Source: a virus. From it: DNA of 55,298 nt. The stretch lies in the IMG/VR virus record IMGVR_UViG_3300046167_000533, positions 1 to 55,298 of that record. One strand, given 5' to 3'. The notes under the pieces are model-generated. The model ran no database searches. It worked only from the letters and a program-made list of their open reading frames with translations, and had not been told where the DNA came from. The position numbers were made by a program, and so were the translations under genes. Positions 23,722-44,264 of this stretch are shown here, piece after piece. Numbering within the stretch: the first letter of the stretch is position 1; every line of letters starts with the position of its first letter.

Positions 23722-23798
23722 TTATTTCAGCCCTTGTCACAGCTACGTTTCCCAGCGAGTATCTGTTTACTGACGCTCATATGACGCACGGAGGCGCA

Positions 23799-24794
23799 AT
23801 GGCAACGATTCGGCAGCGCGGAAAAAGCTGGTACGCAGAGGTACGGCTGAAAGGGAAAGTCTCGCGCAAATCATTCAAGACTAAGGCTGCTGCTAACTCA
23901 TGGGTGCTCCAGACTGAGGGGGCCATAGACAGTAACAAGTGGGTCGATGTTCGCGAATCGCGGGCCGCGCTCATCGAGAACATTATCGACTTACTGATTT
24001 ATTCCTATGAACGGTTTGGGATTCAGGTCGCTGGGCCGAAGCTGTCTGCCCTCACTCAGATCAAAACATACTTCCAAGGCACATCAATTCACCTGCTTAC
24101 AGTAGATGAAGTATTGGACTTCGCTGCGTATCGACGGCGCACGGTTTCAGGAAGCACGTTGCAGAAGCAGATGTACTACTTCAAGCAGGCGATCGACAAC
24201 AGCCGTATCCGTACGGAGGTCGCTGCGGTCGACATTGCGATCGAGGAGTTAAAGCGCAAGAAAATAATCAAAGGCAGCAGACTTAGGGACAGGCGTTTGG
24301 AGCCTGGAGAGTATGAGTCGTTAATGCGTGAGGCCGAGGGACATTGGATTGGCCCAGTCATCGACTTTGCGCTAGCTACGGGTATGCGTCAGGGCGAAAT
24401 CTGGGCGTTTAAGTGGTCTGACATAGACGAAAAAGCAGGCACACTTACCTCAATGCGAAAAGACAAAGACGCTGAATCAGGTAAATCCAAGCATGAAATA
24501 CCGCTGTTAGAGGGCGTGAGAGAGGCGCTCCAGCGTGCACAAAACTTAGTTCCGCAAGGGCCAAAGCTTGTTCCTGTAAAGCAAGCGGCTTCAATTTCAG
24601 ACAAGTTTGCGAAACTTACGAAAGCCGCCAACATCGTGGACTTAAAGTTCCATGATCTGCGCCATGAAGCTATTAGTCGGATGTTTGAACGCGGTATGAC
24701 TATCGAGCAAGTGCGTGTTGTTTCAGGTCATCGCTCGTTTGAACAGTTGGCACGATACGTCAACTTGCGGGCTGGGGATCTAACCGGCTTGTAA
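23799..24794 (+). CDS. int: Tyrosine-recombinase integrase
   Basis: 331 residues from the ATG at 23799, chosen because GGAGG lies six bases upstream. It has an N-terminal arm-binding/SAM-like region (TIRQRGKSWYAEVRLKGK...) and a C-terminal catalytic domain with Arg in ATGMRQGEIWAFKW, HDLRHEA, GHR, and the nucleophile Tyr in ARYVNL. All of R-H-R-H-Y are present, so it should be active. It would recombine attP with a host tRNA-Ser gene. Its 3' end overlaps the convergent excisionase-like gene by 35 bases. Confidence 0.92.
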   Translation: MATIRQRGKSWYAEVRLKGKVSRKSFKTKAAANSWVLQTEGAIDSNKWVDVRESRAALIENIIDLLIYSYERFGIQVAGPKLSALTQIKTYFQGTSIHLLTVDEVLDFAAYRRRTVSGSTLQKQMYYFKQAIDNSRIRTEVAAVDIAIEELKRKKIIKGSRLRDRRLEPGEYESLMREAEGHWIGPVIDFALATGMRQGEIWAFKWSDIDEKAGTLTSMRKDKDAESGKSKHEIPLLEGVREALQRAQNLVPQGPKLVPVKQAASISDKFAKLTKAANIVDLKFHDLRHEAISRMFERGMTIEQVRVVSGHRSFEQLARYVNLRAGDLTGL

Positions 24795-26085: not shown

Positions 26086-26775
26086 TTACTGCGCGTACTG
26101 CTTGTACAGATCTTCAGCAACTTTGTAGTCGGCTTCCTGTGCCCAACCGATGAACGTGACTTCGCAATTCATAAATGCTTTGCCCATCTTGTTCTCGGTA
26201 GGTACGCCGGACACTTTCCACAAGCCAGCGAAACGGTCACCGCCTTTCATACCGATCTGTGAGTTCCATGCTTTGGATACGCGTAGCTTGGAGCTAGCGA
26301 AGTCCATGATGGCTGGTGAGCGTTCTAGCTCTCCGGTCACAGGATCTTTGATCAGGATGACGTGTGCGTGCGTTTCGTTGATGTCGTACTCATCAGGCTT
26401 GTCTTGAGCAGACACGTACGCGTCAGCTTCTGCCTGAGATGTATATGCACCACCGTAACCGCCGCCAGCTTCTAGCTTGCGCCAGACAACGAACTCAGTT
26501 CTGAAGTGCAGGCTGATGCAGTACAGATCATTACCGTAGTTGTGGTTGGTCAGGGTGTTGACCAAGTGGCCTGGCTCGCAGCCCTCAACGTATGATTGAT
26601 GGTGCTTGTCGACCTCATTGGACATCTTCTGCAGAAGTTTGACCCGAGGGATCTGTACATTCTGGCCGACGTTCTCGTTGCCACGACCTACGCCTTCGAC
26701 AGCTTTGAGGTGGGCAGGAAGTTTGTCGGTTGATGCGACAAGGTTTGCTGTTGTAACTGCTACTGATTTACTCAT
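26086..26775 (-). CDS. Conserved phage protein, possible ssDNA-binding protein (229 aa)
   Basis: A soluble, beta-rich 229-residue protein with an NVQIPRVKLLQKMSNEVDKHH...EGCEPGHLVNTLT segment, a pattern known from conserved phage replication-region proteins often placed beside recombination nucleases. It has no catalytic signature. The neighbourhood (helicase, VRR-NUC, polymerase arm) makes ssDNA binding a fair guess but not a demonstrated one. Ribosome site AAGAG before the ATG. Confidence 0.5.
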   Translation of the reverse strand: MSKSVAVTTANLVASTDKLPAHLKAVEGVGRGNENVGQNVQIPRVKLLQKMSNEVDKHHQSYVEGCEPGHLVNTLTNHNYGNDLYCISLHFRTEFVVWRKLEAGGGYGGAYTSQAEADAYVSAQDKPDEYDINETHAHVILIKDPVTGELERSPAIMDFASSKLRVSKAWNSQIGMKGGDRFAGLWKVSGVPTENKMGKAFMNCEVTFIGWAQEADYKVAEDLYKQYAQ

Positions 26776-26799
26776 AGAAATACTCTTCTTTATTCGTGT

Positions 26800-27165
26800 T
26801 TAAAGGGATCGAAAGTTAATGCGTCGTATGTCGCGAGGGGCTACGCCTGGGACTTCCTGCCCTAGCTTCCACATTTCTTTGCAAGCCGTAGAACTCGCAC
26901 GACGTTGAAGGTAGCTGTAGTCCTCGGTTGCTGAGCAGTGCGCATAGAGCGCATCCCAATCAGTAACGTCAGGTACAGTGTCTTCGTTTATGGACACGCT
27001 GGCTTTGCTGTTCGCGGTGCGCGACAAACCCTGCTCGTCCAATTTGGCGAAGAGTTGGTGATCAAGATCGTCCTTGGCTTTACCCAACTCTTTTAGCTGA
27101 GCGTTGAGACGAGCGATCTCGTCTTTGACGCCAGCGTATTCGTTAATTAGTTCATCAATTGTCAT
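26800..27165 (-). CDS. Coiled-coil phage protein in the helicase operon (121 aa)
   Basis: The N-terminal half is a coiled coil (VKDEIARLNAQLKELGKAKDDLDHQL). The C-terminal half has a conserved-looking WDALYAHCSATEDYSYLQRR...GQEVPGV block. It is encoded between the SF2 helicase and the possible ssDNA-binding protein. It may be a helicase or SSB partner, but no family function is known to me. Confidence 0.5.
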   Translation of the reverse strand: MTIDELINEYAGVKDEIARLNAQLKELGKAKDDLDHQLFAKLDEQGLSRTANSKASVSINEDTVPDVTDWDALYAHCSATEDYSYLQRRASSTACKEMWKLGQEVPGVAPRDIRRINFRSL

Positions 27166-30886: not shown

Positions 30887-32197
30887 CTACACGGCAAGCA
30901 GTCCACGATCTTTATCAGTGAAATGCTTGTTCGTTACTTCGTTGAATTGGTCTTCAGGCAGGGACCAGTTTGTTACAACTCCACGGATTGGAGGGTTGCT
31001 GCGCGGAGCTTTGAACTCTCGTTTCTGTGACTTAGTTACGCCACATCGCTCTGCTTTCTTTTGGAACTCACGTTGCGATAATCGGTCGTCTGTCAGTACT
31101 CCATACACAACGCGCAGATGCTCCATTGGTATAACTGAGTACTCCCATTTAGATTCAGCAATCCATTGCTTAACGAAACGTTGTGCCGTGGTAATTTCCT
31201 GGCCCTGCATTACGTTGGTTACACTGATGTCGAGTACTTCGGTGAAGAAGTCTAGCTTTCCATGCCGCACTGCTGCGAAGAACTCTTCCATAACAGACAT
31301 CGTAACTTGTGCCATTTGCGCTTTTGCGTTGTTGGCAATTGGTGTGCGGACTAGCTGCTTGTTCACGCTGTAGTGGCGTAGCAGTGCTGCAAATCTGTGC
31401 AGCTCCTTGTCGATGTCATCAATACCTTCGATGACTTCTGGGTACACATGTTCGAGTTTCTGCTCTTGGCGAGGCGCGATGTTGTATCGGCGGTCGCCTT
31501 CTTCGATTTTTACTGCGTCCATCCTGTTCGTGAGGAAGATGAAGTTCGTATAGTTTGGTAGTTCAACTTGATTAGAACGCATCGCACGAATAGTCATGGT
31601 GTTTTCTGTGATTGCGTTCTTGAGCTTGTCAGCAATCTTCATAGTCCCTGAATTAGCAGATGCCATGTGGAACTCGTCAACTACAAGGAACAAGGCTTGT
31701 CGCATGTACAAGTTGAATTGTTCTTCGATGTTCTGCAGCGCACGCATAGGTACATGTTCGTTGCCGAACAGCGGTCTGAGTACTTTGGTATAAAAGATGC
31801 CTTTACCTGTACCTGGTACACCTTGTAGAACCCAAGCAGTCATGGCTTTCTTTCTGGTCTGAAAGATGTATGCGAGCCAGTTGGTGAAGTGTTCTACTTC
31901 TAAGTTTTCACCACCGAGTATGTGCTTCATCAGTTTGTAGATCAGCGGACAGGAATCCGCGATCTTGTGTGCGTCGCCCATGCTTAGCGATTCGTGCTCA
32001 CGGTTCGATAACAGATACTCGCTTTTGCGGAACATGTTGATGAAATACGGCACGTTGGTCAGGTTGACTGCGTTTTCTTCTGACGCTGGGTCGAATACGA
32101 CTTTGGCATCGGGTACGAAAGTCTGGTTTGCTGCGACCGTGTGACCGCATAAATCCTTCGAGGCTAGACTGCGATGCAGGGTTGAGCGGAAAGTCAT
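30887..32197 (-). CDS. Phage/plasmid primase, SF3 helicase part
   Basis: The intact C-terminal piece of the primase-helicase (436 codons; true continuity from about 32150). Walker A GVPGTGKG, Walker B LFLVVDEFHM, and motif C NFIFLTNR with the following Asp/Arg identify a D5/P4-type SF3 helicase that loads at the phage origin. The C-terminal 190 residues are a helical region likely to hold a winged-helix origin-recognition part, as in the P4 alpha family; this last point is inferred. Confidence 0.8.
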   Translation of the reverse strand: MTFRSTLHRSLASKDLCGHTVAANQTFVPDAKVVFDPASEENAVNLTNVPYFINMFRKSEYLLSNREHESLSMGDAHKIADSCPLIYKLMKHILGGENLEVEHFTNWLAYIFQTRKKAMTAWVLQGVPGTGKGIFYTKVLRPLFGNEHVPMRALQNIEEQFNLYMRQALFLVVDEFHMASANSGTMKIADKLKNAITENTMTIRAMRSNQVELPNYTNFIFLTNRMDAVKIEEGDRRYNIAPRQEQKLEHVYPEVIEGIDDIDKELHRFAALLRHYSVNKQLVRTPIANNAKAQMAQVTMSVMEEFFAAVRHGKLDFFTEVLDISVTNVMQGQEITTAQRFVKQWIAESKWEYSVIPMEHLRVVYGVLTDDRLSQREFQKKAERCGVTKSQKREFKAPRSNPPIRGVVTNWSLPEDQFNEVTNKHFTDKDRGLLAV

Positions 32198-32214
32198 CGC
32201 AGAACTGGTTCAGA

Positions 32215-32496
32215 TTAGGGTCGAATACACCGTTGTAGTAGGTGTCGGTCATGTAGTCTCGCAGGACTACAGGGAACGACGGCACGTCCTTCCTTCTCCA
32301 TTTCTTCTTGATACACATCAAACAGTGTCTTGTAGAACTCTGGGTCAGCATCTTCGATGGACCAGATCGGCTCACCCTTGAAGTTGTACATGTATGTTGG
32401 GTCTTCAAGTTTGAAGTAGTACGCGTTGCTGTCTCCGCCGTTGACGTTGCACCGGATGTACGGAGGGTTGGTATCGTCTGCTATTGCGATCGACAT
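32215..32496 (-). CDS. Primase-helicase linker fragment
   Basis: Central fragment of the same broken gene. The residues from MSIAIADDTNPPYIRCNVNGGDSNAYYFKLEDP to YQEEMEKE belong to the linker between primase and helicase. The last 17 residues are out of frame. The continuation (DVPSFPVVLRDYMTDTYYNGVFDPN) lies in the next frame from about 32290 to 32155. Not an independent gene. Confidence 0.4.
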   Translation of the reverse strand: MSIAIADDTNPPYIRCNVNGGDSNAYYFKLEDPTYMYNFKGEPIWSIEDADPEFYKTLFDVYQEEMEKEGRAVVPCSPARLHDRHLLQRCIRP

Positions 32497-32607
32497 GCGG
32501 TCAGGGGTTTTTTAAGACTTCTTCTGTCTTGGCGTTGACCGTAACAATCTCTGTGCGTTCTTTCTTTCGCGTTGAACCCGCGTTGTGTACGCAGCTTGTT
32601 TTTTAAC

Positions 32608-33387
32608 TCACGCCCTTTTTGGCTGACTAGCTCGGGGCTTATATCGTTCATGAGCGCAGCTAAGTCCAACGTATCGGAGAGACCGGAGACGCGCACGATC
32701 CGCTCGGAGGAAGAGCCGAACGGATCGTGGGTTCCGTCTTCGAAGGTAGGAGGGGCTACGAAGATCAGCTTTTGAGTTGTCAGCTACGCTGGTGTCCAGT
32801 GGGTACTTCAACGAATGACCGTTGGAAGATAGCTCTAACTGGGATGAGAACAGCTTCGACTCAAAATTGCAGTTCTGTAACCACAGCTTCACAGCCGCAG
32901 CTGGCATCGCATAGGTCAACAGAATAAAAATATGGAGCGATACCTTGTCGCCTTTTAAACCAAGACTCGAAGACGCTTGTGCGATAAAGCTGCAGTCCTG
33001 CACTTCCGGTGGCAGTTCTCGCATCACGGACTTCGCAATCGAGCCGACATCTTTGTCGGTGAATTGTTTTGGGTTTGTGTGGTTCGGCAGAGTTATACCG
33101 TCGATATCTAGAACAAGGAGGCTGGTATAGCCAACGCGATCAGTCTTACCTGCTCGCGATTCGTTCTGGAGATTTCGTTTTAAGTTTCCTTTCAGTAAGC
33201 AAAAACCTTGTTCGCCTTTATCCCGTATTGACTGCTCAAGCATGGCTAGGCCAGTGACGTCAGTGGGCAGCTGTTCGGTATGCGACGTTACGTTTTTTAC
33301 ATGTGGGTAAGGGGTAAAACCATTTGTTGGGCTGTGCCGTTTACTGAGCCGCTGTCCATTAGCGGCTTCTAAAAACGTTATTTGCAT
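32608..33387 (-). CDS. Phage primase, AEP domain (N-terminal fragment)
   Basis: N-terminal piece of the primase-helicase from the ATG at 33387. TSLLVLDIDGITLP carries the DxD metal-binding pair, and KVSLHIFILL the sxH motif, of archaeo-eukaryotic primases. The frame is good to DTSVADNSK near 32770; the remaining residues to the stop are out of frame, and LIFVAPPTFEDGTHDPFG continues in the next frame. Confidence 0.65.
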   Translation of the reverse strand: MQITFLEAANGQRLSKRHSPTNGFTPYPHVKNVTSHTEQLPTDVTGLAMLEQSIRDKGEQGFCLLKGNLKRNLQNESRAGKTDRVGYTSLLVLDIDGITLPNHTNPKQFTDKDVGSIAKSVMRELPPEVQDCSFIAQASSSLGLKGDKVSLHIFILLTYAMPAAAVKLWLQNCNFESKLFSSQLELSSNGHSLKYPLDTSVADNSKADLRSPSYLRRRNPRSVRLFLRADRARLRSLRYVGLSCAHERYKPRASQPKRA

Positions 33388-33409
33388 GACTCCTCCTACA
33401 GAGCTACGC

Positions 33410-33428
33410 ATATTAGCATGGCTAATAT
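33410..33428 (-). promoter_or_regulatory. Operator/promoter O7 for the primase-helicase
   Basis: Perfect ATATTAGC-ATG-GCTAATAT. Leftward -10 TAATAT; no convincing -35 at 17 bp (TACTTA). Lies 23 bp before the primase start and just past the csrA stop. Confidence 0.75.
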
Positions 33429-33431
33429 AAA

Positions 33432-33617
33432 TTAAGTAGGATTTGCGTCTTTTTCAAATACTTCCTGTCGGTCGATCCTGACCGATTCGTCTGCTTCAAA
33501 TGTCAGACGAACTTGATTCCTGTCAACTTTGGAGATTTTAACTCTCGCGAGGACGCCGTCATCGCTGTGGATGACTACTGTTTCTTGGATTTTTCTCGTT
33601 AATACCAAACGTGGCAT
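33432..33617 (-). CDS. csrA: CsrA/RsmA-family translational regulator
   Basis: 61 residues from the ATG at 33617; a GTG three codons earlier overlaps the polymerase stop. It aligns by eye along the whole CsrA length: LVLTRKIQETVVI (beta1-2), VLARVKISKVDRNQVRLTFEA (beta3-4), and VRIDRQEVFEK with the RNA-binding Arg/Glu (beta5-helix). Family members dimerise and bind GGA motifs in mRNA leaders, blocking or helping translation and changing host carbon and motility programmes. It is the last gene of the polymerase operon. Whether it acts on host or phage mRNA is not known. Confidence 0.8.
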   Translation of the reverse strand: MPRLVLTRKIQETVVIHSDDGVLARVKISKVDRNQVRLTFEADESVRIDRQEVFEKDANPT

Positions 33618-33622
33618 ATGGC

Positions 33623-35440
33623 TCACTTGCTGTAACTAACGTCATAACCGCCTTCGGCATCCAAGGGGATGTCTGGTGCCCATGCTGGCGGGGTACACAT
33701 GTGCTGTATTAGCTTCCGCATTGTAGCATCAGGATCATTAGCTTCACTAATAATAATGATCTCGTCATGCACGGTGAGTACGATGTCAGCGTCCAGTGTT
33801 GGGTCGTTTTTGATACGGAGCATTGCGTCTGTAACAACGATACGCGATAGCGCTTGTACGACATTTTCTGCGATGCGCCCTCCCCAAGTGGTTTCAGGTG
33901 CTAGCCCTCTGCCTTTGTAGGTGAGTTTGCCGTGCCACAAGTGTAGCTCGTTGTAATGTAGGGCCATTCCATTAGGCAGATGGATCTTTTTGTCTTTGAA
34001 TTTTAGGCCGTGCCAGTCTTCTTCGTGGCTTGCCTGCAATGTCTGCGTTAATTTGAGTTCGAGTTTTTGCCAAAGCAGCGGGATACCGAAGTAAGTGTTG
34101 CGATAGGTCGATACAACACCAAGTGCCTGGTCATTGGTGAACGTCATTGGGGGGCCCATTGCACCAGTCTCCAAAGTGGACTGGAATTTTGCTGCGCCCA
34201 TCCCGTAACCCAGCCCAAGTACTGCGGTCTTGCCAACAAAGCGCTCTGTTGGATCATCGTTTTTATTGATTGGTCGGTCGTAGATGATGCTGGCGAGGTT
34301 GCTGTAGATGTCGTCACCATTACGGAACTGATTGAGTAGATCTTGTTCGTCTGCGAGCCATGCGAGCATACGGGCTTCGATGTTCGACAAGTCAGCAACA
34401 AACACAAGTTTGCCTGGTGGGGCGCACAACGCTTTGCGCATCGGTGAGTTGCGGGGCATGTTCTGCATGTTAATTTTTTCGGTGCCCCCGAAGCGGCCGG
34501 TGTGTGCTGCGTAGTATCGCAATGGGACTGAGAGCGTGCCGTCTTTATTGGTAGCATCAATGAAACGCTGAGCCCTGGTCTCGTTGATGCGACTCTTTGC
34601 AGCTTTGCGGGCATCCCATATCAGTTGATGCTCTGGGTACATACTTTGTAGCTGGGTAAATGCTTTGTCGTTCTTACCAAGAGCGGGTATGAATTTACCA
34701 GTTGTAGGGCTGCGTTTGGTTGGCGGGACTAGGTGTAGCTCGTTCTCAATGTACGCAGCGAACTGTTGATTGGAACTGAGAATTTTTCGTTCGACGCCGC
34801 TTTTTTCAATTGCTGTCTTACTGGCAGTGATTTCTGAGTCGCGGAACTCGATCAGTGCTTCGTGGTCCACGACAAGCTTTGGCTCGCAGAACATACGGCA
34901 AGTGATGTCGATAAGATCCATCTCTGACGTAGGCATATCTACGACCCATTGGTCATAGATTGCGCGGGTCAAGTCGACATCTTGGATGCAGTAGCCTGCA
35001 ATAGATGCTTCGAGTTCGGGATCAAGGTCATAGATACCTTTTGCGTCTGAAAGCTCGTCGCCTTTTCGCATGGTGTCGTCTGTTGGGAACGCGCGTATTG
35101 CGCAGTCTTTCAAACGTGCGCTTTGCCCTGGAAAGAGGCCGCGACTCATTGCTGCAGTGTCGACGTAATACTTGGGGGTTAGTCCGTAATACTGTGTGAG
35201 TATGTACGCATCGAATAGTGTGTTGTGACATAGGAGCGTTACGTTGTCCCAGTCCAGGGCACGTAGCGCGTCTTCGCACTCATCTTCTCCGTACCATTCT
35301 GTAGCATCATGATTGATCTTGATGCCAACACCCCAGACCTTGAAGCGATCGTCTTGGACGTACTCCATCGTCGTCATCTTGGTCAGGGAAAAAGATTTAT
35401 CGTAGAACGTTTCGAAATCCAACGTGACGAGGCAGTTCAA
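33623..35440 (-). CDS. Family A DNA polymerase with 3'-5' exonuclease
   Basis: 605 residues from a TTG start that overlaps the previous stop (TTGA) and has GAGGAG upstream. Exonuclease: LDFETF (D8, E10), CHNTLFDA (D77), YCIQDVDL (D154). Polymerase: motif A VFVADLSNIEARMLAWLA (D350), motif B ERFVGKTAVLGLGYGMG (R400, K404, Y412), motif C LTVHDEI (H558-D559). All catalytic residues are present; there is no 5'-3' exonuclease. This is the replicative polymerase of the phage. The frame is intact, unlike the neighbouring primase. Confidence 0.93.
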   Translation of the reverse strand: MNCLVTLDFETFYDKSFSLTKMTTMEYVQDDRFKVWGVGIKINHDATEWYGEDECEDALRALDWDNVTLLCHNTLFDAYILTQYYGLTPKYYVDTAAMSRGLFPGQSARLKDCAIRAFPTDDTMRKGDELSDAKGIYDLDPELEASIAGYCIQDVDLTRAIYDQWVVDMPTSEMDLIDITCRMFCEPKLVVDHEALIEFRDSEITASKTAIEKSGVERKILSSNQQFAAYIENELHLVPPTKRSPTTGKFIPALGKNDKAFTQLQSMYPEHQLIWDARKAAKSRINETRAQRFIDATNKDGTLSVPLRYYAAHTGRFGGTEKINMQNMPRNSPMRKALCAPPGKLVFVADLSNIEARMLAWLADEQDLLNQFRNGDDIYSNLASIIYDRPINKNDDPTERFVGKTAVLGLGYGMGAAKFQSTLETGAMGPPMTFTNDQALGVVSTYRNTYFGIPLLWQKLELKLTQTLQASHEEDWHGLKFKDKKIHLPNGMALHYNELHLWHGKLTYKGRGLAPETTWGGRIAENVVQALSRIVVTDAMLRIKNDPTLDADIVLTVHDEIIIISEANDPDATMRKLIQHMCTPPAWAPDIPLDAEGGYDVSYSK

Positions 35441-35631
35441 AATAGCTCCTCATTTTTGGCAGCTTCAGATTCGTAATGGGCATACAAATTGCCCTCGATT
35501 GCTTTGAACTGTTCGTTGAGTTCGTTGAAGGTGCCAGGCATACGAGACTCGACCCACACTTTTACAAAGCTGGCTAGCTCAGGGGGGGACGATTGCTCTT
35601 CGTTCAAACGGATGTATTCGTCGATATCCAT
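35437..35631 (-). CDS. Small acidic protein upstream of polymerase (64 aa)
   Basis: Start chosen at 35631 because AAGGAG precedes the ATG by eight bases. The product (DIDEYIRLNEEQSSPPELASFVKVWVESRMPGTFNELNEQ...) is acidic and helical. Its final codons overlap the TTG start of the polymerase, so translation is coupled. No family recognised; may be a polymerase accessory. Confidence 0.55.
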   Translation of the reverse strand: MDIDEYIRLNEEQSSPPELASFVKVWVESRMPGTFNELNEQFKAIEGNLYAHYESEAAKNEELF

Positions 35632-35659
35632 ACTAGTACTCCTTACGTTGGATATTTTT

Positions 35660-35842
35660 TTAGGGTTTGAAGATCTCCAGTACTGTGACTGCACTCCATT
35701 CAGCGGTTTCGTATTCGGGACGCGATAGAACAATTAGCTGACCGGTTTTATCGTGCGCGATCATTGCTGTTTCGTGTAGCTGATCGGCTATGAACTCGGC
35801 TTCTTCTATTGCGTACTCGATGGTGGTGAACTTAGTTGCCAC
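35660..35842 (-). CDS. Small hypothetical protein (60 aa)
   Basis: The probable start is the GTG at 35842, inside the last codons of the DUF3310 gene, giving (V/M)ATKFTTIEYAIEEAEFIADQ. A compact alpha/beta protein of 60 residues with no motif. Coupled to the gene before it in the polymerase operon. Confidence 0.45.
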   Translation of the reverse strand: MATKFTTIEYAIEEAEFIADQLHETAMIAHDKTGQLIVLSRPEYETAEWSAVTVLEIFKP

Positions 35843-36152
35843 CTGAAAGGCGCTCAATTTCGGCGTCGATGTAAAATTTAATCTTCTTTGCATCGCGCAG
35901 TTGGTTACTGTGGGATGCTTCGCCGTATCTGTAGCAGCTGCGAAAGATCTCACCGATTTGCGCGTTCATGTTTTTATCGGAGATAAGGTGTTGAAGCTCA
36001 GTGGCATGACTTGGCAGTTGGTAGTACGAAGCGGTTGATCCGTCAGACCGTGATGCGTTAGGGGGTGCATCATCGGTGGGGGCAACGGTTTGTCGAAGAT
36101 ATTTGCGATTGAGGTTGTCCCAATCGGCGGGGTTGGCTTTATCGATGCTCAT
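35832..36152 (-). CDS. DUF3310-type small protein (106 aa)
   Basis: Start at 36152, with AGGAGGT eight bases upstream. The C-terminal half shows the DUF3310 pattern: YYQLPSHATELQHLISDKNMNAQIGEIFRSCYRYGEASHSNQLRDAKKIKFYIDAEIERL. This family is common in phages beside replication genes and is sometimes labelled a nucleotide kinase, without proof. First gene of the operon that holds the polymerase and csrA, driven from O8. Confidence 0.65.
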   Translation of the reverse strand: MSIDKANPADWDNLNRKYLRQTVAPTDDAPPNASRSDGSTASYYQLPSHATELQHLISDKNMNAQIGEIFRSCYRYGEASHSNQLRDAKKIKFYIDAEIERLSGGN

Positions 36153-36177
36153 CTTGTTACCTCCTGATAAGCATTCA

Positions 36178-36196
36178 ATATTACTGTTACTAATAT
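36178..36196 (-). promoter_or_regulatory. Operator/promoter O8 for the polymerase-csrA operon
   Basis: ATATTACT-GTT-ACTAATAT, with an extra overlapping half-site ATATTAGC (36193-36200). Leftward: TTGAGT, 17 bp, TAATAT. The TACTAATATTAG..CTCAAGA flank is shared with O5. Confidence 0.75.
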
Positions 36197-36202
36197 TAGC
36201 AC

Positions 36203-37324
36203 TCAAGATAAATACGCCACTTGTTTCATTTCTTCCATTTGGATTCGGCAGATGCTGCCCCACGGGGCATCGCGGTCTGTTGTTGATACCCACAGAACTG
36301 GGTAATTTGGTTCATCGCCAAAGTCGTCGCTGATTAAGTCGGTCAAGTAAATTGCTGCATCAACGTCGTGGTGTTCGTTGAGGTACTCAAACGCTGGAGC
36401 GAATGATGTGCCGCCACCTCCTTTGATCGGCGTCATGGGGAACGCTTCGTCGGGTTCGACCTCATCTATATGAGCTACTTTTGTATCTACATGTAGAATG
36501 GTGAGCTTAGATGGCTGTAGCTCGGTATGAACTGCAGCAACTTCACTTATGAATTGATTCCAGTAGGCACTGCATGACCCAGATGCATCGATAATGAATG
36601 CTAGATGGCCAGCACCTTCTGAGTACAACGAGGGAAGATACTCGTCTTCACTGATGTACGCGCGGTTAGGCTTGCGCCAGCTGTAATCGTTATTCACAAT
36701 TTCTGTGCAGAAAGGCCACATAACAGATCGCCAGTCGATGATTGGCTTGACCACATCTTTGATAAAAGTCTCAAGGTGACCAGGCAGCTTGCCTGCTGCT
36801 TTTGCAACTTGCGCTGCTTGTGTCACTGCGACTTGCCATTCTGATTCTAGCGAGGCATTCGAGCCTGCATCGATTTGGGAAGCATTAGCATCGAGGACGA
36901 TGCCCCAAGCACATTGCTTAACGCCTTCGTCTTTGATTTTGTTGTAGATCGCTTCGGCGCTCATGTCATCGTACTGCGAGTCAATGAGTCCACCTTCAGG
37001 GAGTATGAATCCTGATTGCACTAGGTGGCTATTGATCGCGAAGTCACATGCTGCGTTCCAGATCTTATGATCGCGTTCTTGCCGTCGCGTCATATGATTG
37101 AACACACAGTGCATGACTTCGTGTGCGATGAGCCCTTTGCGAGTCAAAGGGTCGAGCTTGCCGATGAACTTGCTGTTGTACACAAGCTGCTTACCATCGG
37201 TAGCAGCTGTGTCGCAGCCGTCATCGTCTTGCACTAGTTTAAGCCGCAACGCCAGCGTGCCGAAGAACGGATGTTCCATCAGCAGCTGGGCTCGGGCTTT
37301 TACCATGTCAGCTTCTGCGGACAT
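36203..37324 (-). CDS. VWA-like protein with N-terminal metallopeptidase domain (DUF2201 type)
   Basis: 373 residues. The N-terminal domain has LIAHEVMHCVFNH (H68-E69-x-x-H72), the zinc site of DUF2201_N putative peptidases. The C-terminal domain is VWA-like, with FIIDASGSC as a DxSxS MIDAS motif (246-250) and later TPIKGGGGTSF and LTDL. Such proteins are partners of MoxR AAA ATPases, encoded here two genes upstream (38061-39059). Starts after GGAGG. Whether it cleaves proteins or acts as a metal-dependent adaptor is not known. Confidence 0.8.
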   Translation of the reverse strand: MSAEADMVKARAQLLMEHPFFGTLALRLKLVQDDDGCDTAATDGKQLVYNSKFIGKLDPLTRKGLIAHEVMHCVFNHMTRRQERDHKIWNAACDFAINSHLVQSGFILPEGGLIDSQYDDMSAEAIYNKIKDEGVKQCAWGIVLDANASQIDAGSNASLESEWQVAVTQAAQVAKAAGKLPGHLETFIKDVVKPIIDWRSVMWPFCTEIVNNDYSWRKPNRAYISEDEYLPSLYSEGAGHLAFIIDASGSCSAYWNQFISEVAAVHTELQPSKLTILHVDTKVAHIDEVEPDEAFPMTPIKGGGGTSFAPAFEYLNEHHDVDAAIYLTDLISDDFGDEPNYPVLWVSTTDRDAPWGSICRIQMEEMKQVAYLS

Positions 37325-37325
37325 A

Positions 37326-38051
37326 TTAGCCTCCTAGGAGTTTTGCCGTTAGCACGGCTTGGTTTGCAACAGTTGGGTCGAAAGAGATTTCTTCTTTGAT
37401 TGTTTGAGCACGTTGCGCACGAGTAACCTTGCGGTGTAACTCTTGCAGTTTGTTGTTTGGGACAAGCGACTCAGCGCCAGGCCAAATCTGCAGCAACTGC
37501 TTGAGTGTTGTGCATTTGCGCACCAGATCTTTGATCTGTTTTTCGTACTGGTCTTTTGCTTCGCGGTGCGTTTTTTCCGAGTCTTTGAACTTGGTGAACA
37601 TATCGATGACATCTGACTTGTCTTCGTCACGGAAGTCGTTGATATAAATGGTTGCGTCGCTCCATGAGTAACCGCCTCTTGGGGTCATTGTTCGGTAGAG
37701 CATTGGAGTTGCAAGAGTGATGTCGCAGCAAGGGTCACGATCAGGGTTACGGATGGATGAGTCTGCAAGTACATTCGAAAGAGATTTGAGCTTGACCTTT
37801 ACGTTTGTGATGTCGTTTCGCTTAGGTAAGCAATGGTCACCGTAGATATATTCGCCGGTAACCTCTTTATCCGCTGCATCTTGCGCAACTTTCTCAAGGA
37901 ATTTTTGTACAGGTGAGTTGGTTATACCGTCACGCACAGCTTGTACAAACTCGTTGCTAGGCTTGGGCTGAGGGTTTGCGGTGTCGTACGCATCTCGCGC
38001 GGCTCGAAAGATGTCATCGCCAAGTTGAATTGTCATTCTTACTGAGGCCAT
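37326..38051 (-). CDS. Hypothetical protein between MoxR and VWA genes (241 aa), possibly Nmad5-like
   Basis: 241 residues with an acidic and helical second half (IDMFTKFKDSEKTHREAKDQYEKQIKDLVRKCTTLKQLLQIWPGAESLVP). The TLKQLLxIWPxxExLVP stretch resembles the nucleotide-modification-associated domain 5 (Nmad5) of phages, a weak resemblance from memory. Always within the MoxR/VWA operon here, with a good AGGAGA site. Could be the substrate or third part of that pair. Confidence 0.5.
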   Translation of the reverse strand: MASVRMTIQLGDDIFRAARDAYDTANPQPKPSNEFVQAVRDGITNSPVQKFLEKVAQDAADKEVTGEYIYGDHCLPKRNDITNVKVKLKSLSNVLADSSIRNPDRDPCCDITLATPMLYRTMTPRGGYSWSDATIYINDFRDEDKSDVIDMFTKFKDSEKTHREAKDQYEKQIKDLVRKCTTLKQLLQIWPGAESLVPNNKLQELHRKVTRAQRAQTIKEEISFDPTVANQAVLTAKLLGG

Positions 38052-38060
38052 AAGTTTCTC

Positions 38061-39059
38061 CTAAAGTAGTACGTCTGCGTTTTTTACAGACCAGTCAGTG
38101 AAGGTTTGGGATTGGATTAAGGTGCGGTCTTTTGCGAGAGCGTCTTTCATAACTAACACGCCATACTCTGTAGGCAGTCGGTTTGCGTATTTGACGATCG
38201 CCGCAAAGTTTTCTTTGGTTACACGAACGGTCAGCGCACCAATAACAGCGAAGATGACCGAAGTACTGGTCGGTACTTTCGCAGTGGTTGGATTAGCGAT
38301 GACATCATCGATGTCGGGTAGATCTTGGTAGATTGATTTGAATGCAGCGAACTCACCTGCAGCTGCGTCGCCTACCAGGGACGCAACGCCGTAAAACTCG
38401 TCGTGCATGAATGGCAGTTTACGATTGACGTATGCCCATGCGCGCGGCGTTGGGAATGCGTTTTGTGTTGCGTCCACTTGTGACAACAGCTGTGGTCGGA
38501 AACGTAAGAAGCTGATTAGGGTCTCGTCAATGCCGTTGTTTACAGCCCACGCAATCCAGTCATCGATGTTTGATTCGAGAACGAAGTGCGAGAAGCGGTT
38601 TTTGACAGGTGTCGGCATCTCATGCACAGCGGCTCGGTCAGTGGATCGGTTACCAGCAGCGATGAAGGTGGTGTTTGGCGGGCAGGTGTATGTACCAATC
38701 TTGCCAGTGGTGAGCAGCTGCAGAAGTGAGTTCTGTGTTGCTTTGGGAGCAGTTGTAAGCTCGTCGATTAGGATGGTAACAGCGCCTTGGTAGTTGCTGT
38801 CTGGGTAATCCTCGGGCACACCATATCGCGTTCGGTATGTGCCATCTTCTTGCTCGACAACTTTTAAGCCACCACGCACGTCGACTGGGTCAAACAAGTT
38901 GGCGCGGATTTCAAAGAGTTTTGAGTTCAGGTCCTCTGCAACTTGGTATGCGATTTCAGACTTACCCTCGCCGGGTGCGCCGTGCATCATGCTTGGGATT
39001 CGGGCTAAGGCATTCGCCTTGAGTTCTTCTTTGAGGGCGGAAGGACGGATAGTTCTCAT
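38061..39059 (-). CDS. MoxR-family AAA+ ATPase
   Basis: 332 residues. Walker A GAPGEGKS (27-34), Walker B TILIDELTTA (D99-E100), sensor-like FIAAGNRSTDRAAVHEMPTPVKNRF with the Arg finger region near 150-165. This is the MoxR/CbbQ pattern of chaperone-like AAA ATPases that act with VWA partners to activate or remodel a target complex. The VWA-metallopeptidase gene lies 0.75 kb downstream in the same operon. The phage target is unknown. Confidence 0.85.
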   Translation of the reverse strand: MRTIRPSALKEELKANALARIPSMMHGAPGEGKSEIAYQVAEDLNSKLFEIRANLFDPVDVRGGLKVVEQEDGTYRTRYGVPEDYPDSNYQGAVTILIDELTTAPKATQNSLLQLLTTGKIGTYTCPPNTTFIAAGNRSTDRAAVHEMPTPVKNRFSHFVLESNIDDWIAWAVNNGIDETLISFLRFRPQLLSQVDATQNAFPTPRAWAYVNRKLPFMHDEFYGVASLVGDAAAGEFAAFKSIYQDLPDIDDVIANPTTAKVPTSTSVIFAVIGALTVRVTKENFAAIVKYANRLPTEYGVLVMKDALAKDRTLIQSQTFTDWSVKNADVLL

Positions 39060-39292
39060 ACGTTATCTACTCCTAAGATAAAGGTTTGATTCAGGCTTGA
39101 TGCCATGTCATAGATGAGTTCCCAGATTTGGTTGGGCTCCCAGTGCTCAAAAGGCTGCCAAGCCGTATCGGACACAAATTCCATCAAGCGGTCTTCAGAA
39201 AGGTGCATCCAGTTCGGTGGCAACGGGTGGCTTAGATAGTGTGTCGCTGCGTAAGCAATTAACTGTTCTCTATTCCACATTTGTTTTTGCAT
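39056..39292 (-). CDS. Small hypothetical protein (78 aa)
   Basis: Start at 39292, preferred because AAGGAG is six bases before it; an ATG two codons earlier abuts the ribosome site. The product is Trp-rich (W at several positions: PPNWMHL, DTAWQPFEHWEPNQIWEL) and overlaps the MoxR start by ATGA. No family recognised. Confidence 0.5.
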   Translation of the reverse strand: MQKQMWNREQLIAYAATHYLSHPLPPNWMHLSEDRLMEFVSDTAWQPFEHWEPNQIWELIYDMASSLNQTFILGVDNV

Positions 39293-39494
39293 CGGCATCT
39301 CCTTCTAGTGCAGTGATGTATGGATCGAGGGACGACTTGAGTGCATTGAACAGCCAATCATCCTTCGCGATTTGCGCATCGCGGTCCGCGTCTGGGTCTC
39401 CTTCAGTCACGGGCGCAAATACGCCTTCACCGTCTAACCAGTCCGAGTAATCGGAGTAAGGGTCGTCGGTGTTCCGGCAGGGCATTCGACTCAT
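39270..39494 (-). CDS. Small acidic hypothetical protein (74 aa)
   Basis: Very acidic (DDPYSDYSDWLDGEG..., DPDADRDAQIAKDDWLF). Good AGGAG six bases before the ATG. Its end overlaps the next gene by 23 bases and its start overlaps the HTH gene upstream, so it is translated as part of a chain. DNA-mimic or anti-host roles are possible for such acidic early proteins but not shown. Confidence 0.5.
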   Translation of the reverse strand: MSRMPCRNTDDPYSDYSDWLDGEGVFAPVTEGDPDADRDAQIAKDDWLFNALKSSLDPYITALEGDADAKTNVE

Positions 39495-39970
39495 GCATGT
39501 CTCCTAAATGAATCGTTTCGGAATTGACGGAATGCTTTGTCTGATTCGATGAACTGTTTCATTAACTGTTCAAGCACGGCTTTTTGGCGTTCTGTGACGC
39601 GGCAATCCATCAGCTGTGTGATTATGTTGATGTTGAGAAGCTCGCGCGGTTCAGGCCGTTTCATGTTTATGGTTTTGCCGTCAGCCGCTTTGATTTGCTC
39701 CGTTTTTGGTGATTCCGCACGTGGAGCTGGTTGCGGAGGCGCTGCTTTTACTTTGCTAGAGCGTTTTTTGCTGGTGATGGTGCCGACTGGCACAGACAGC
39801 AGTTCAGCAACTTCAGTTGCATATTTCTTACTTACGCCATGAAAACACCATTGGCTTACGCTTGTTGGGTGAACACCTAATAGGTTCGCTAGCTCGCCTT
39901 GGTTGATGCCGTTGGCTTTGAGCGCGGCTCGGGTGTTATGCCCTTTTGCGCATTGGATTAGCTTGGTCAT
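39491..39970 (-). CDS. XRE-type HTH regulator (159 aa)
   Basis: N-terminal HTH at about residues 20-60: INQGELANLLGVHPTSVSQWCFHGVSKKYATEVAELLSVPVGTI, the Cro/CI-like pattern in which the Gln and Ser-Val-Ser-Gln recognition helix are clear. A basic, Pro-rich linker and a helical C-terminus (VTERQKAVLEQLMKQFIESD) follow. AAGGAG site. It sits in the early arm, far from integrase, so it may be a Cro-like or late-switch regulator and a rival candidate for reading the palindromes. Confidence 0.65.
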   Translation of the reverse strand: MTKLIQCAKGHNTRAALKANGINQGELANLLGVHPTSVSQWCFHGVSKKYATEVAELLSVPVGTITSKKRSSKVKAAPPQPAPRAESPKTEQIKAADGKTINMKRPEPRELLNINIITQLMDCRVTERQKAVLEQLMKQFIESDKAFRQFRNDSFRRHA

Positions 39971-39990
39971 AGTGACTCCTTTTGTTTGGG

Positions 39991-40230
39991 TTAGAGGGTG
40001 CGGTTTACTGTGTTGTAGACCGAGTAGTACGAGAGGTTTAACTGCGCGGCGATTTCGCGGTATCCGAGTCCTGTGTTTCGAAGTTCACGGATCGCTTCTT
40101 TTTCTTTTTGTGTCAGCGCTGCACGTCTTGATTTACGTGCGCCCCATCCGTCGTATAACGCATGCACATGTTTGCCGCGTTCACGTACAAATTCTTGAGC
40201 TTGGATTGCTTCGAGGAATTTCTTTGACAA
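39991..40230 (-). CDS. Small HTH protein (79 aa, TTG start)
   Basis: C-terminal HTH of the resolvase/homeodomain-like type: LTQKEKEAIRELRNTGLGYREIAAQLNLSYYSVYNTVNRTL. The N-terminal 35 residues are basic. The only in-frame start without truncating the protein is TTG at 40230. A second putative transcription factor beside the XRE gene. Confidence 0.5.
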   Translation of the reverse strand: MSKKFLEAIQAQEFVRERGKHVHALYDGWGARKSRRAALTQKEKEAIRELRNTGLGYREIAAQLNLSYYSVYNTVNRTL

Positions 40231-40245
40231 CGTGTTTCGCCTTTT

Positions 40246-40425
40246 TTATTTGTAATTTTGGTTGCCAGAAACAAGCTTTGCGAAGCTTGCGTTTTTCCGA
40301 CCTCGTTTGATTCCGCCCCAAGTGTTTTTACGCACGGGTTCTACCTGGGGAATCGTGTTGTTCGACGCTTTGGCGACGGATTTGCGGAAAGCCTTCGTGT
40401 TCCGCGATGCGCGTTTCTTGCTCAT
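40246..40425 (-). CDS. Small basic hypothetical protein (59 aa)
   Basis: Start at 40425 (SKKRASRNTKAFRKSVAKASNN...). Strongly basic, no motif. Follows, on the same strand, a 120-bp non-coding stretch with a GC-rich repeat. May bind nucleic acid. Confidence 0.4.
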   Translation of the reverse strand: MSKKRASRNTKAFRKSVAKASNNTIPQVEPVRKNTWGGIKRGRKNASFAKLVSGNQNYK

Positions 40426-40508
40426 GGTCTTCGTACCTCGGTTTGTGATTCGCGGTTCACGGGCACGACGGTCGGAAATGATGATAGTGAAGCAGGCACA
40501 CCATCTCC

Positions 40509-40524
40509 GCCCATCGCGCCCCCC
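40509..40524 (-). repeat. 16-bp inverted-repeat copy (partner at 43645-43660)
   Basis: The complement of these bases is identical to 43645-43660 (six G followed by CGCGATGGGC). The two copies point toward each other's strand and frame the leftward block of small genes and the iteron array. Both lie in non-coding sequence. Confidence 0.6.
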
Positions 40525-40548
40525 TGCCGCCGGAGCCATACAGCGGCA

Positions 40549-40582
40549 TAAAAAAACCCACACACTCGAAAGAGTGCATGGG
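40549..40582 (-). terminator. Rho-independent terminator, leftward
   Basis: Stem CCCA/TGGG plus CACTC/GAGTG with a GAAA loop and a two-base internal bulge. On the leftward transcript it is followed by a U-run (A-run 40549-40556 on this strand). It ends the gene at 40594-41391. Confidence 0.75.
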
Positions 40583-40593
40583 CTTTGGTGGTG

Positions 40594-41391
40594 CTAAGCG
40601 GCTTTGGCTTTAGCATTGCGCTTGATGGTGCGCTTGTTGGACAAGTTGGATTGCAGCGCTTCGAGGCGTTCCTGCGACGGGTGGCGAGGATCGTCTTCGA
40701 GCGAGAAGTCTGCGTTGAGGTCAGACTCGTCGAGTGCGTCGGCGCGCTGCAACTGCTTGGCGATCTCGTCCATGTAGGACATTGCCTCGTCCCAGTCGCG
40801 TGTCTGAATCTCGTTGACCCACTTATCGTCTTTGAGGGTAGAAGGCGCGAACAGATACAACGGCTCGCTGTTCGAGACTCGAAGTTTGGCGCTGATCAAC
40901 ACTGCGGTACGTTCGAGCAGCGTGTATACGTGCTCAACCTCGCTTTTGATCATGGCCTGCGACTCGGCGTTGAAGCCGTGCTCTTCGCCAAAGTCGTTAG
41001 CGAAGTCGAGACCGTTGCCGCCGAGCATCATCTCCTCAAGCTCGTCAACGTCGTGGCGTTTGGTAGCGCCTTTACGAACGTTCCAGCAGATTTTGTCCAT
41101 GACATTCTGCAAGAAGCCGTAGAACGAGATGTCGTAATACTCAGGTTTGAACGCTTCGCCAAGCTCGTTGGCTTTCTCTTCAGCGCGGCGGTTGTCGATT
41201 GCGTTACGGATAGACGCTTTGTACAGCGCGTGGAAGATCGTCGGTGCGGCGTTGTCGCCGTGTGTCGCTTTGGACATCTCGGCGTGAACTGCGATAGCCA
41301 TGCCGGATTTGTAGGTGGAGTTGCCGTTGGCGATATCAGTGATAGCGGTTTCGACAATGAGATTAACGTTGTTTACGTCTACGTTTTCCAT
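40594..41391 (-). CDS. Hypothetical early protein (265 aa)
   Basis: A soluble, acidic, helical protein of 265 residues with no recognised motif (NGNSTYKSGMAIAVHAEMSKATHGDNAAPTIFHALYKASIRNA...). It forms its own unit: O9 170 bp upstream with a good TTGGCT/TAATAT promoter, and a strong terminator right after the stop. That isolation suggests high or separately timed expression. Function unknown. Confidence 0.6.
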   Translation of the reverse strand: MENVDVNNVNLIVETAITDIANGNSTYKSGMAIAVHAEMSKATHGDNAAPTIFHALYKASIRNAIDNRRAEEKANELGEAFKPEYYDISFYGFLQNVMDKICWNVRKGATKRHDVDELEEMMLGGNGLDFANDFGEEHGFNAESQAMIKSEVEHVYTLLERTAVLISAKLRVSNSEPLYLFAPSTLKDDKWVNEIQTRDWDEAMSYMDEIAKQLQRADALDESDLNADFSLEDDPRHPSQERLEALQSNLSNKRTIKRNAKAKAA

Positions 41392-41498
41392 GATTGGAAT
41401 TTCCTATTCAAGTTTAAAAAAATGAAACAGATCCTCTGTTTCAAAAACAAAACCGACGCGCCACGTCGGAGACGTAGGCGCAGGTTTACGGGCTTACC

Positions 41499-41687
41499 TC
41501 AAGAGGCGCTGGGCTTTGGATTCCAAAAACCGATGTCCTCGCTGAAATGCGACTCAGCAAATATATTAGCATCGCTAATATCGTCAGCCAAGTTTAAGAC
41601 GTCCACGGACTGAGGCCGTGCCTCCGCGTGATCGATTACTGAATCCAGTAGAGACCAACGCTCTACGTTGAGATTAAGTTCTTTCAT
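41499..41687 (-). CDS. Small acidic protein with an operator inside its gene (62 aa)
   Basis: Start at 41687 with AGGAG upstream (KELNLNVERWSLLDSVIDHAEARPQSVDVLNLADDISDANIFAESHF). Acidic, single domain. Codons for the DISDANIF part are the O9 palindrome, so this coding region also serves as promoter for the next gene. Modest confidence that it is translated. Confidence 0.45.
   Translation of the reverse strand: MKELNLNVERWSLLDSVIDHAEARPQSVDVLNLADDISDANIFAESHFSEDIGFWNPKPSAS
41563..41581 (-). promoter_or_regulatory. Operator/promoter O9 for the 40594-41391 gene
   Basis: Perfect ATATTAGC-ATC-GCTAATAT. Leftward: TTGGCT, 17 bp, TAATAT. Lies within a small upstream reading frame, leaving a leader of about 165 bases. 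Confidence 0.75.
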
Positions 41688-41711
41688 ATGATTGCTCCTA
41701 CGCAATTGAGA

Positions 41712-41948
41712 TTAACGGGAATGATAGTCGTGCAGATCCACTGCGGCTGAGACGCCAGTGTGGTCTTCCAGATCGTCGACATCGGACTCAATATCCATGA
41801 GCAGCAATGTCATGATACCTAGCATTACGTCGCTAGGATTTTCTTTTGCATACGTTGCAGCGCGTTCTGCGTACGGACGAGCTGCGCTGATGTATGCATC
41901 TTTGCGTGCGAACACACGGCTCGCGGTAGCTTTGAGGTTACTAATCAA
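41712..41948 (-). CDS. Small hypothetical protein (78 aa, TTG start likely)
   Basis: A GGAGG lies eight bases before TTG at 41948, so that codon is preferred over the ATG at 41963, which itself forms the ribosome site. Helical, amphipathic (NLKATASRVFARKDAYISAARPYAERAATYAKENPSDVMLGIMTLLLMDIESD), with a short hydrophobic patch. Overlaps the preceding stop (TTGATTAG). Function unknown. Confidence 0.45.
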   Translation of the reverse strand: MISNLKATASRVFARKDAYISAARPYAERAATYAKENPSDVMLGIMTLLLMDIESDVDDLEDHTGVSAAVDLHDYHSR

Positions 41949-42228
41949 GGGTGATACCTCCATTGGTTTTGTAAGAAAGATAGGTCTCTTCGTGATCGAG
42001 GCGTCCTATCCGTGGGACTACATCTGTAGTCAAGAAAGAAGGTGCGAACGGGTGGAGATCGTCTTGGTCTTGGACGCAGAGATATGCGTCGTTCCACTCG
42101 TTATGCAGACAGATGAGGTTGCCGTGCGGTAGATCGGACGAGTACATCATTTCGCGATTGAAGTGGTTGTTGAGCATCGCGAGTACCAACACGATGAAAA
42201 TTATAGAAGCGGTGAGAATACGGGTCAT
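41941..42228 (-). CDS. Membrane-anchored or exported small protein (95 aa)
   Basis: Residues 4-20 are a hydrophobic helix (ILTASIIFIVLVLAMLNN) after a short positive start: an uncleaved signal anchor or signal peptide. The rest is soluble with two Cys (LICLHNEWNDAYLCVQD) that could form a disulfide in the periplasm. GGAGG before the ATG. No family recognised. Confidence 0.5.
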   Translation of the reverse strand: MTRILTASIIFIVLVLAMLNNHFNREMMYSSDLPHGNLICLHNEWNDAYLCVQDQDDLHPFAPSFLTTDVVPRIGRLDHEETYLSYKTNGGITLD

Positions 42229-42407
42229 CAGTGAACCTCCGGTTGGTGTTGTTCGGTGTCATCGGTGACAGCGTTGAACATGTAGAACATTGCGTTGCGG
42301 TAGTCTTCGTTGATCACGAACATGACACCTGCGATAACGAGTGCAGCGGTCGTGATAAGCAAAGCTCCGCATAAAAAAGCGAAGAAAATAGCGAAGAAAG
42401 TAGCCAT
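42228..42407 (-). CDS. Single-pass membrane protein (59 aa)
   Basis: Start at 42407 with GGAGG seven bases upstream. Residues 2-34 are very hydrophobic (ATFFAIFFAFLCGALLITTAALVIAGVMFVI), one or two helices, with an acidic tail. Overlaps the next gene by ATGA. First gene left of the iteron array. Confidence 0.5.
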   Translation of the reverse strand: MATFFAIFFAFLCGALLITTAALVIAGVMFVINEDYRNAMFYMFNAVTDDTEQHQPEVH

Positions 42408-42464
42408 ATGGCCCTCCAATTGATGATAGTCATTAATGACCGTGATTCGTGGTTCGCGGTCAGT

Positions 42465-42774
42465 GTGTAGCAGGAACGGGGGGTGTGTAGCAGCTTGGTA
42501 GCAGCTTTGGTAGCAGGTTCAAAACACACAAAATGTAATGAAAACAATGATGTAGCAGTGTGTAGCATGTGTAGCAGGTAAATTTGAGTTGAAGTTCGAT
42601 TTAGAAAAAAAAACGGTGTTTTTGAAAAACGATCTGAACAAGTCAAAAAAGCTGCTACACATGCTACACATAGGGTGTTTAGACCTAAGTGGTTGAATAC
42701 AAAGGAAAACTTTGTGTAGCAGAATCGGAAAAATAGCTGCTACACACCTGCTACACACTTCAAAGCTGCTACAC
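42465..42774. repeat. Iteron-like array, candidate replication origin
   Basis: Thirteen copies of a 8-9 bp unit, GTGTAGCAG or one-base variants, fill most of the non-coding gap 42408-42776. Seven direct copies lie at 42465-42577. Six more lie at 42652-42774, five of them inverted and one direct (42714). Between the clusters is an A/T-rich tract (42589-42650). Two iteron clusters around an AT-rich core recall the ori/crr pair used by P4-type primase-helicases, and this phage encodes such an enzyme. Function as origin is inferred. Confidence 0.6.
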
Positions 42775-43793: not shown

Positions 43794-44264
43794 ATGCCAG
43801 CAACCACTCTCGTATGTTCAGGCTGCGGTTCCGCAAAGCCAAAAAAGGAATTTGAGCGCAACCGAGTTCAGTGCCAGGCGTGTCGCACGACCGCAGCCCA
43901 AAAACGCATATCCGCGAGCTACAAATCGTACTTGCGGAACCTCTATTCAAAATCCAAGAACTCCAACAAACGCGATCCCCGAGCCGCGAACCGTGATTGG
44001 CACATAACGTATGAAGATTTAGTTGCGAAGTGGACTGAGCAAGGTGGGCGCTGCGCGCTTTCCGGTGTATACCTAACGCATCACGTTGATGGCTCTGGTG
44101 TAAAAGACAACAACGCGTCAATCGACAGGATTTCACAAGAAGTTGGCTACACCGCTGCAAACACGCAGCTGGTTTGTTATCGCGTCAACATAATGAAGCA
44201 CAATTTGCCTGAAGATATGTTCTTTTGGTGGATCAAGACCATCGGTGATTTCACTTGTGATTAA
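43794..44264 (+). CDS. HNH endonuclease
   Basis: 156 residues. Zinc-ribbon-like CSGCG...CQAC near the N-terminus (8-11, 27-30), then the HNH core WTEQGGRCALSGVYLTHH...NASIDRISQEVGYTAANTQLVCYRVNIMKH. The fused order GGRCxLSG...ASIDRIxxxxGY...N is that of the phage/bacterial HNH family. Phages often place an HNH gene beside terminase, where it helps packaging cleavage; that is likely here. It heads the rightward arm and would have almost no leader on its mRNA. Confidence 0.75.
   Translation: MPATTLVCSGCGSAKPKKEFERNRVQCQACRTTAAQKRISASYKSYLRNLYSKSKNSNKRDPRAANRDWHITYEDLVAKWTEQGGRCALSGVYLTHHVDGSGVKDNNASIDRISQEVGYTAANTQLVCYRVNIMKHNLPEDMFFWWIKTIGDFTCD

What the first reader, a model, noticed from the sequence alone, without database searches (positions are those of the whole stretch)
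42465..42774. Iteron array in a coding gap, candidate origin
Thirteen GTGTAGCAG-type units in two clusters around an A/T-rich core occupy the longest gap of the leftward arm. The phage encodes a primase-SF3 helicase of the kind that, in P4, recognises iterons at ori and a distant crr. The unit is not the dispersed palindrome and not seen as a cluster elsewhere.
Basis: partly seen in the sequence, partly recalled or inferred. Interest (0 to 1): 0.72.

Follow-up and report, generated by a model that had tools for sequence, protein, structure and literature searches.

The report
Phage replication origin with switching repeats
This is very probably the replication start site of an aquatic phage: thirteen short repeats placed symmetrically around an A/T-rich core, and across dozens of related phages the layout stays fixed to about one base pair while the repeat sequence itself keeps changing.

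Summary
Thirteen GTGTAGCAG-type units lie at 42465-42774, and all seven exact copies in the 55 kb window are there. It is the PICI/SaPI-type origin: two iteron sets flanking an A/T-rich core, used by an initiator with an SF3 helicase.

I found 62 array-bearing relatives (53 non-redundant), array at the same place. Inner repeat doublets are exactly 9 bp apart in about 90%, around a ~75% A+T core. The unit differs by lineage: TGTGTAGCAG, TTGTGCCAG, TGTGTGACGG, CTGTGTCAG and more. An IHF-consensus site sits at fixed places (exact in 29/53, 1 expected). KPP25, a cultured relative with no detectable integrase, has the array in an unannotated gap.

Distant phages whose primases share the DUF5906 helicase module (NrS-1, Mcat4, S1) carry such an array directly behind that gene; in the window family it lies ~9 kb away. 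This ties the array to the helicase.

No protein, the helicase included, was shown to co-vary with the unit. Origin function and binding are inferred, not shown. Novelty: detachment from the gene, the IHF site, the unit turnover.

The parts
42465..42516 (+). Outer left iteron cluster: four plus-strand units starting at 42465, 42485, 42496, 42508 (spacings 20, 11, 12)
   Evidence: Sequence and repeat search; the same spacing within about 1 bp in relatives
42550..42577 (+). Inner left iterons, inward-pointing: 42550, 42560, 42569; the last two form the 9-bp doublet
   Evidence: left doublet spacing exactly 9 bp in 39 of 45 measurable arrays
42578..42651 (.). A/T-rich core, presumed melting region
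   Evidence: 72% A+T against 49% for the window; median 75% in relatives, core gap IQR 69-73 bp
42652..42669 (-). Inner right iterons, inward-pointing doublet 9 bp apart (a triplet in many relatives)
   Evidence: 42652-42670 is the exact inverse of 42559-42577; right spacing 9 bp in 41 of 45
42686..42698 (+). IHF-like site TAAGTGGTTGAAT, one mismatch to YAANNNNTTGATW
   Evidence: exact in 29/53 relatives' arrays (1.05 expected), at most one mismatch in 51/53 (20 expected)
42714..42774 (.). Outer right cluster: plus unit at 42714, minus units at 42737, 42748, 42766
   Evidence: same order (+ - -) in relatives
30887..33411 (-). Primase-SF3 helicase gene, proposed initiator, broken by frameshifts in this record; pieces 32608-33411 and 30887-32197
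   Evidence: phrog_24712 N- and C-terminal matches; frames; intact 853-codon frame in L238; DUF5906 hit in L238

Best explanation
The array is the phage's replication origin, of the bipartite PICI/SaPI layout. Shown: inward-pointing iteron clusters with 9-bp inner doublets flank an A/T-rich core of nearly fixed length; an IHF-consensus site lies between inner and outer iterons; the layout is conserved while the unit sequence changes. Inferred: the C-terminal domain of the phage's primase-SF3 helicase binds the units on both sides; two rings assemble, IHF bending brings outer and inner units together, the core melts, the helicase loads itself, and the fused primase starts synthesis. Turnover of the unit implies that a sequence-specific binder changes with it; the helicase is the leading candidate, but its co-variation was not demonstrated.
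For: Same-place arrays in 62 relatives with fixed spacing and changing unit. IHF consensus at fixed places. Homologous array in KPP25. In NrS-1, Mcat4 and S1, whose proteins share the DUF5906 SF3 domain, the array lies directly downstream of that gene, whether or not a Toprim domain is hit. The predicted structure of the intact homologue matches NrS-1 C-terminal region (E 2e-24), PriRep1 and SaPI5 primase-helicase. Literature: PICI origins have two iteron sets flanking an AT-rich region (PMC6092414); SaPI Rep and Cch2 bind such repeats by the C-terminal domain (PMC7581432).
Against: No co-variation between unit and helicase: Mantel r=0.04, p=0.34; the C-terminal windows are also near zero. The array is ~9 kb from the initiator gene. 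GC skew shows nothing. The initiator gene is broken in this record. No binding, depth or replication data.
Confidence: 0.83

Rival explanations
1. Origin-like array bound by a different, lineage-specific phage initiator or loader (for example one of the small HTH proteins), with the primase-helicase recruited second.
For: Helicase and unit do not co-vary; HTH proteins are encoded nearby (39491-39970; L238 8803-9057).
Against: The HTH genes have few homologues among the relatives (9 and 15 loci), while the array is general; in NrS-1, Mcat4 and S1 the array sits behind the helicase gene itself. No widely shared gene family stood out.
Confidence: 0.08
2. Packaging (pac/cos) site read by the small terminase, with IHF as an accessory as in lambda cosB.
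For: It lies ~1.7 kb from the small-terminase gene; IHF-like site; some contig ends fall at the array.
Against: TerS does not co-vary with the unit (r=0.09, n=56). The G027 contig ends are a ~200-bp overlap differing in a poly-T run, and L006/L117 overlap by 16 bp, so these ends are assembly breaks. The symmetric A/T-core layout and linkage to helicase genes in distant phages do not fit.
Confidence: 0.03
3. Operator array for a repressor or early regulator.
For: It lies upstream of a leftward gene, in the arm of early genes.
Against: No sigma-70-like promoter inside; rigid dyad layout around an A/T core; same layout behind helicase genes in unrelated phages.
Confidence: 0.04
4. attP site with integrase arm sites and IHF.
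For: The window encodes a tyrosine integrase (23781-24794).
Against: The integrase is about 18 kb away. KPP25's whole genome and several array-bearing records have no integrase match.
Confidence: 0.02

Closest known systems
PICI/SaPI replication origins (PMC6092414) and SCCmec Cch2 with its putative origin (PMC7581432)
   Same: Short iterons in two sets flanking an A/T-rich region (PICI); SF3-type initiator, structurally similar (SaPI5, PriRep1); recognition by the C-terminal domain there
   Different: Here in a phage, ~9 kb from the initiator gene instead of directly behind it; fixed IHF-like site; rapid unit turnover with fixed spacing
Nitratiruptor phage NrS-1 primase-polymerase
   Same: Closest solved structure; 13 AAGTGT hits (6-mer, both strands) at 17065-17369, with an inner GTTACACTT doublet 9 bp apart beside an A/T-rich core
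   Different: Array directly behind the gene. The structural paper proposes two 8-nt sites as possible origin and does not mention the array (PMC7102993)
Phage P4 ori/crr
   Same: Primase-SF3 helicase initiator and short iterons (from general knowledge)
   Different: One bipartite site; no second distant cluster found
ICP1 Odn versus PLE origin iterons (PMC8263062)
   Same: Precedent for selection on iteron sequence by a rival's origin-directed nuclease
   Different: Different initiator; three ~30-bp iterons; the pressure acts on a satellite

Membership tests
PICI/SaPI-type origin | Two iteron sets flanking an A/T-rich region | tested here: met
   definition from PMC6092414
PICI/SaPI-type origin | Located directly 3' of the initiator gene | tested here: not met
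   Array about 9.1 kb from the gene (33411 to 42465); met in NrS-1, Mcat4 and S1
PICI/SaPI-type origin | Initiator related to SaPI Rep, binding iterons by its C-terminal domain | tested here: inconclusive
   Fold match to SaPI5 and PriRep1; binding untested; no co-variation
PICI/SaPI-type origin | Drives autonomous replication with its initiator | not testable with these tools
   Needs a plasmid assay
PICI (as an element) | Satellite island without its own virion genes | tested here: not met
   The window encodes terminase, portal and capsid
P4 ori/crr | Two separate iteron sites | tested here: not met
   Single cluster
NrS-1-like SF3 initiator group | DUF5906 SF3 domain | tested here: met
   Intact near-identical relative L238, E 4e-20; NrS-1, S1, Mcat4 and KPP25 also
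attP of a tyrosine integrase | Integrase present and linked | tested here: not met
   Integrase 18 kb away in the window; absent from KPP25

The most novel reading that the evidence does not exclude
These phages carry a diversifying origin: the layout is frozen but the recognition word is repeatedly replaced across all units, giving origin types under selection from origin-targeting rivals, origin-parasitising satellites or co-infecting relatives, and the binder changes specificity through a few residues.
Probability: 0.35. Interest if true: 0.78.

Novelty: new variant of a known kind. Interest (0 to 1): 0.62.

Why it matters
[quoted passage not shown] It is found here in a widespread aquatic podophage family, in a cultured Pseudomonas phage and behind the DUF5906 initiator genes of unrelated phages. 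That bears on where satellites got their replicons, and it supplies candidate origins for phages with none described in the papers read here. The fixed layout with a changing unit is a natural data set for how an initiator and its site change specificity together.

Tried and rejected
Co-variation of the unit with whole helicase and 50-residue windows: none overall; weak signal (partial r up to 0.33) within residues 326-725, none in the C-terminal windows. Column-wise association: top columns follow clades. Gene-family scan: the highest correlations come from small, narrowly distributed families, some of them reverse-frame ORFs. L285/L286, near-identical over ~4.5 kb with different units: the helicase diverges (90%), but so do the genes near the array, so not decisive. 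Contig ends at the array as physical genome ends: rejected as assembly breaks. DnaA boxes: exact in 6/53 arrays, not pursued. Skew: uninformative. DNA-level similarity to known phages: none. Host: the three GTDB contigs with related helicases sit in MAGs of different phyla and look like phage contigs, so no host is assigned. Geezett and YuA, more distant primases, showed no comparable array; neither did Aeromonas phage phiA008 nor L341/L342 in the stretches read, so the array is not universal or was missed there.

Full report
What is there. The array at 42465-42774 is real and far beyond chance. Seven units on the left all point inward; the core 42578-42651 is 72% A+T; two units on the right point inward, followed by one plus unit and three minus units. 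The inner arms 42559-42577 and 42652-42670 are perfect inverted copies. The array fills the gap between two leftward small genes, and no sigma-70-like promoter was found inside it.

What the phage is. The record is an IMG/VR contig of 55,298 bp. Its capsid protein is 53% identical to that of Pseudomonas phages KPP25 and phiR18. Its replication genes include a family-A polymerase, an SNF2-type helicase, an exonuclease and a primase-SF3 helicase. The last gene is broken by frameshifts in this record and intact in 98-99% identical relatives.

Relatives. Four viral-contig scans and later region fetches gave 62 contigs with an array in the same place, 53 of them non-redundant. The layout is nearly fixed: outer plus units at about 0, 21, 32 and 44, a doublet 9 bp apart at about 97 and 106, a core with a median gap of 71 bp between 14-mers and median 75% A+T, then minus units 9 bp apart, a plus unit, and more minus units. 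In 8 of the 53 the core could not be placed by this rule. The unit changes: TGTGTAGCAG (window), TTGTGCCAG, TGTGTGACGG, CTGTGTCAG, TGTGTGTACGG, GGTGAGACAG, TGTGTTCCA, TGTGTGCAG and others. Helicases 87-89% identical can go with different units (L006 with L293 and L244), and the window's unit recurs with a helicase only 65% identical (L308/L330), though that contig carries only part of an array and in a different arrangement. Two arrays (L234, L324) carry one word in the left inner doublet and another in the right, as expected of an array caught during replacement.

IHF. A YAANNNNTTGATW site is exact in 29 of 53 arrays (1.05 expected from block shuffles) and present with at most one mismatch in 51 (20 expected), mostly between the inner and outer iterons on one or both sides. 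The arrays are related by descent, so the counts are not independent; but the site occurs in both orientations and at mirror places while the flanks differ. The window's copy has one mismatch.

Beyond the family. KPP25 has the same kind of array, units GTTACGA/GTCACGA, in an unannotated gap at 26387-26819, and its genome has no integrase match. A 48%-identical helicase on a contig binned as Neomarinimicrobiota (L340) also has one, with mixed units. Phages whose primases share the DUF5906 helicase have the array directly behind that gene: NrS-1, Mcat4 and S1. In S1 the spacings run 9, 9, 12, 44, 9, 89, 9, 9, 43, 12, 9. Vibrio phage LP.1 and Serratia phage JS26 have looser clusters behind theirs. 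S1 and Mcat4 have weak Toprim hits, so the array goes with the SF3 helicase rather than with one kind of primase. This is the strongest evidence for the partner.

Mechanism. The AlphaFold model of the intact homologue (pLDDT 85) best matches the NrS-1 C-terminal region, then poxvirus D5/E5-type helicases, PriRep1 and the SaPI5 primase-helicase. Its last ~110 residues have a winged-helix-like order of elements, an inference from secondary structure. SaPI Rep and Cch2 recognise short repeats through their C-terminal domain (PMC7581432), and PICI origins have two iteron sets flanking an A/T-rich region (PMC6092414). By analogy: binding on both sides, IHF bending, melting of the core, self-loading of helicase rings, priming. 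Layout, IHF enrichment and gene linkage in distant phages are shown; the steps are inferred.

What does not fit. Unit and helicase do not co-vary at the resolution tested. Either a few residues decide, or the unit changes too fast for a distance test, or another protein reads it. TerS does not co-vary either. The papers read on KPP25-type phages and NrS-1 describe no such array.

Verdict. An origin of the bipartite PICI/SaPI layout, in a phage, detached from its initiator gene, with an IHF-like site and with unit turnover: a new variant of a known kind.

Noticed in passing
window 30887-33411 (-): Primase-helicase gene broken by frameshifts in this record; intact in near-identical contigs, so perhaps a sequence error.
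   Followed up: partly
window 23781-24794 (+): Tyrosine integrase (PF00589), present in 10 of 17 records searched and absent from KPP25.
   Followed up: yes
window 33432-33626 (-): CsrA-family gene (PF02599, E 1.5e-12) directly upstream of the primase-helicase gene, found in most relatives.
   Followed up: no
L351 17065-17369: NrS-1 phage: 13 AAGTGT units on both strands behind its primase-polymerase gene, under an annotated hypothetical ORF.
   Followed up: yes
L352 5247-5517; L354 2472-2726; L357 9076-9480: Origin-like arrays behind primase genes of Moraxella phage Mcat4, Stenotrophomonas phage S1 and Vibrio phage LP.1.
   Followed up: partly
L234 (7698), L324 (6566): Arrays with TGTGTCA in one inner doublet and TGTGCCA in the other, possible intermediates of unit replacement.
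   Followed up: partly
L343/L344 (G027 ends), L006/L117, L330: Contigs break inside the array; overlaps show assembly breaks rather than genome ends in the first two cases.
   Followed up: yes
L238 5801-6166: YspA-type SLOG protein (PF10686) near the array in several relatives.
   Followed up: no
window 43794-44264 (+): Endonuclease VII-like protein that also hits a PHROG labelled decoy of host sigma70 (phrog_4592).
   Followed up: no
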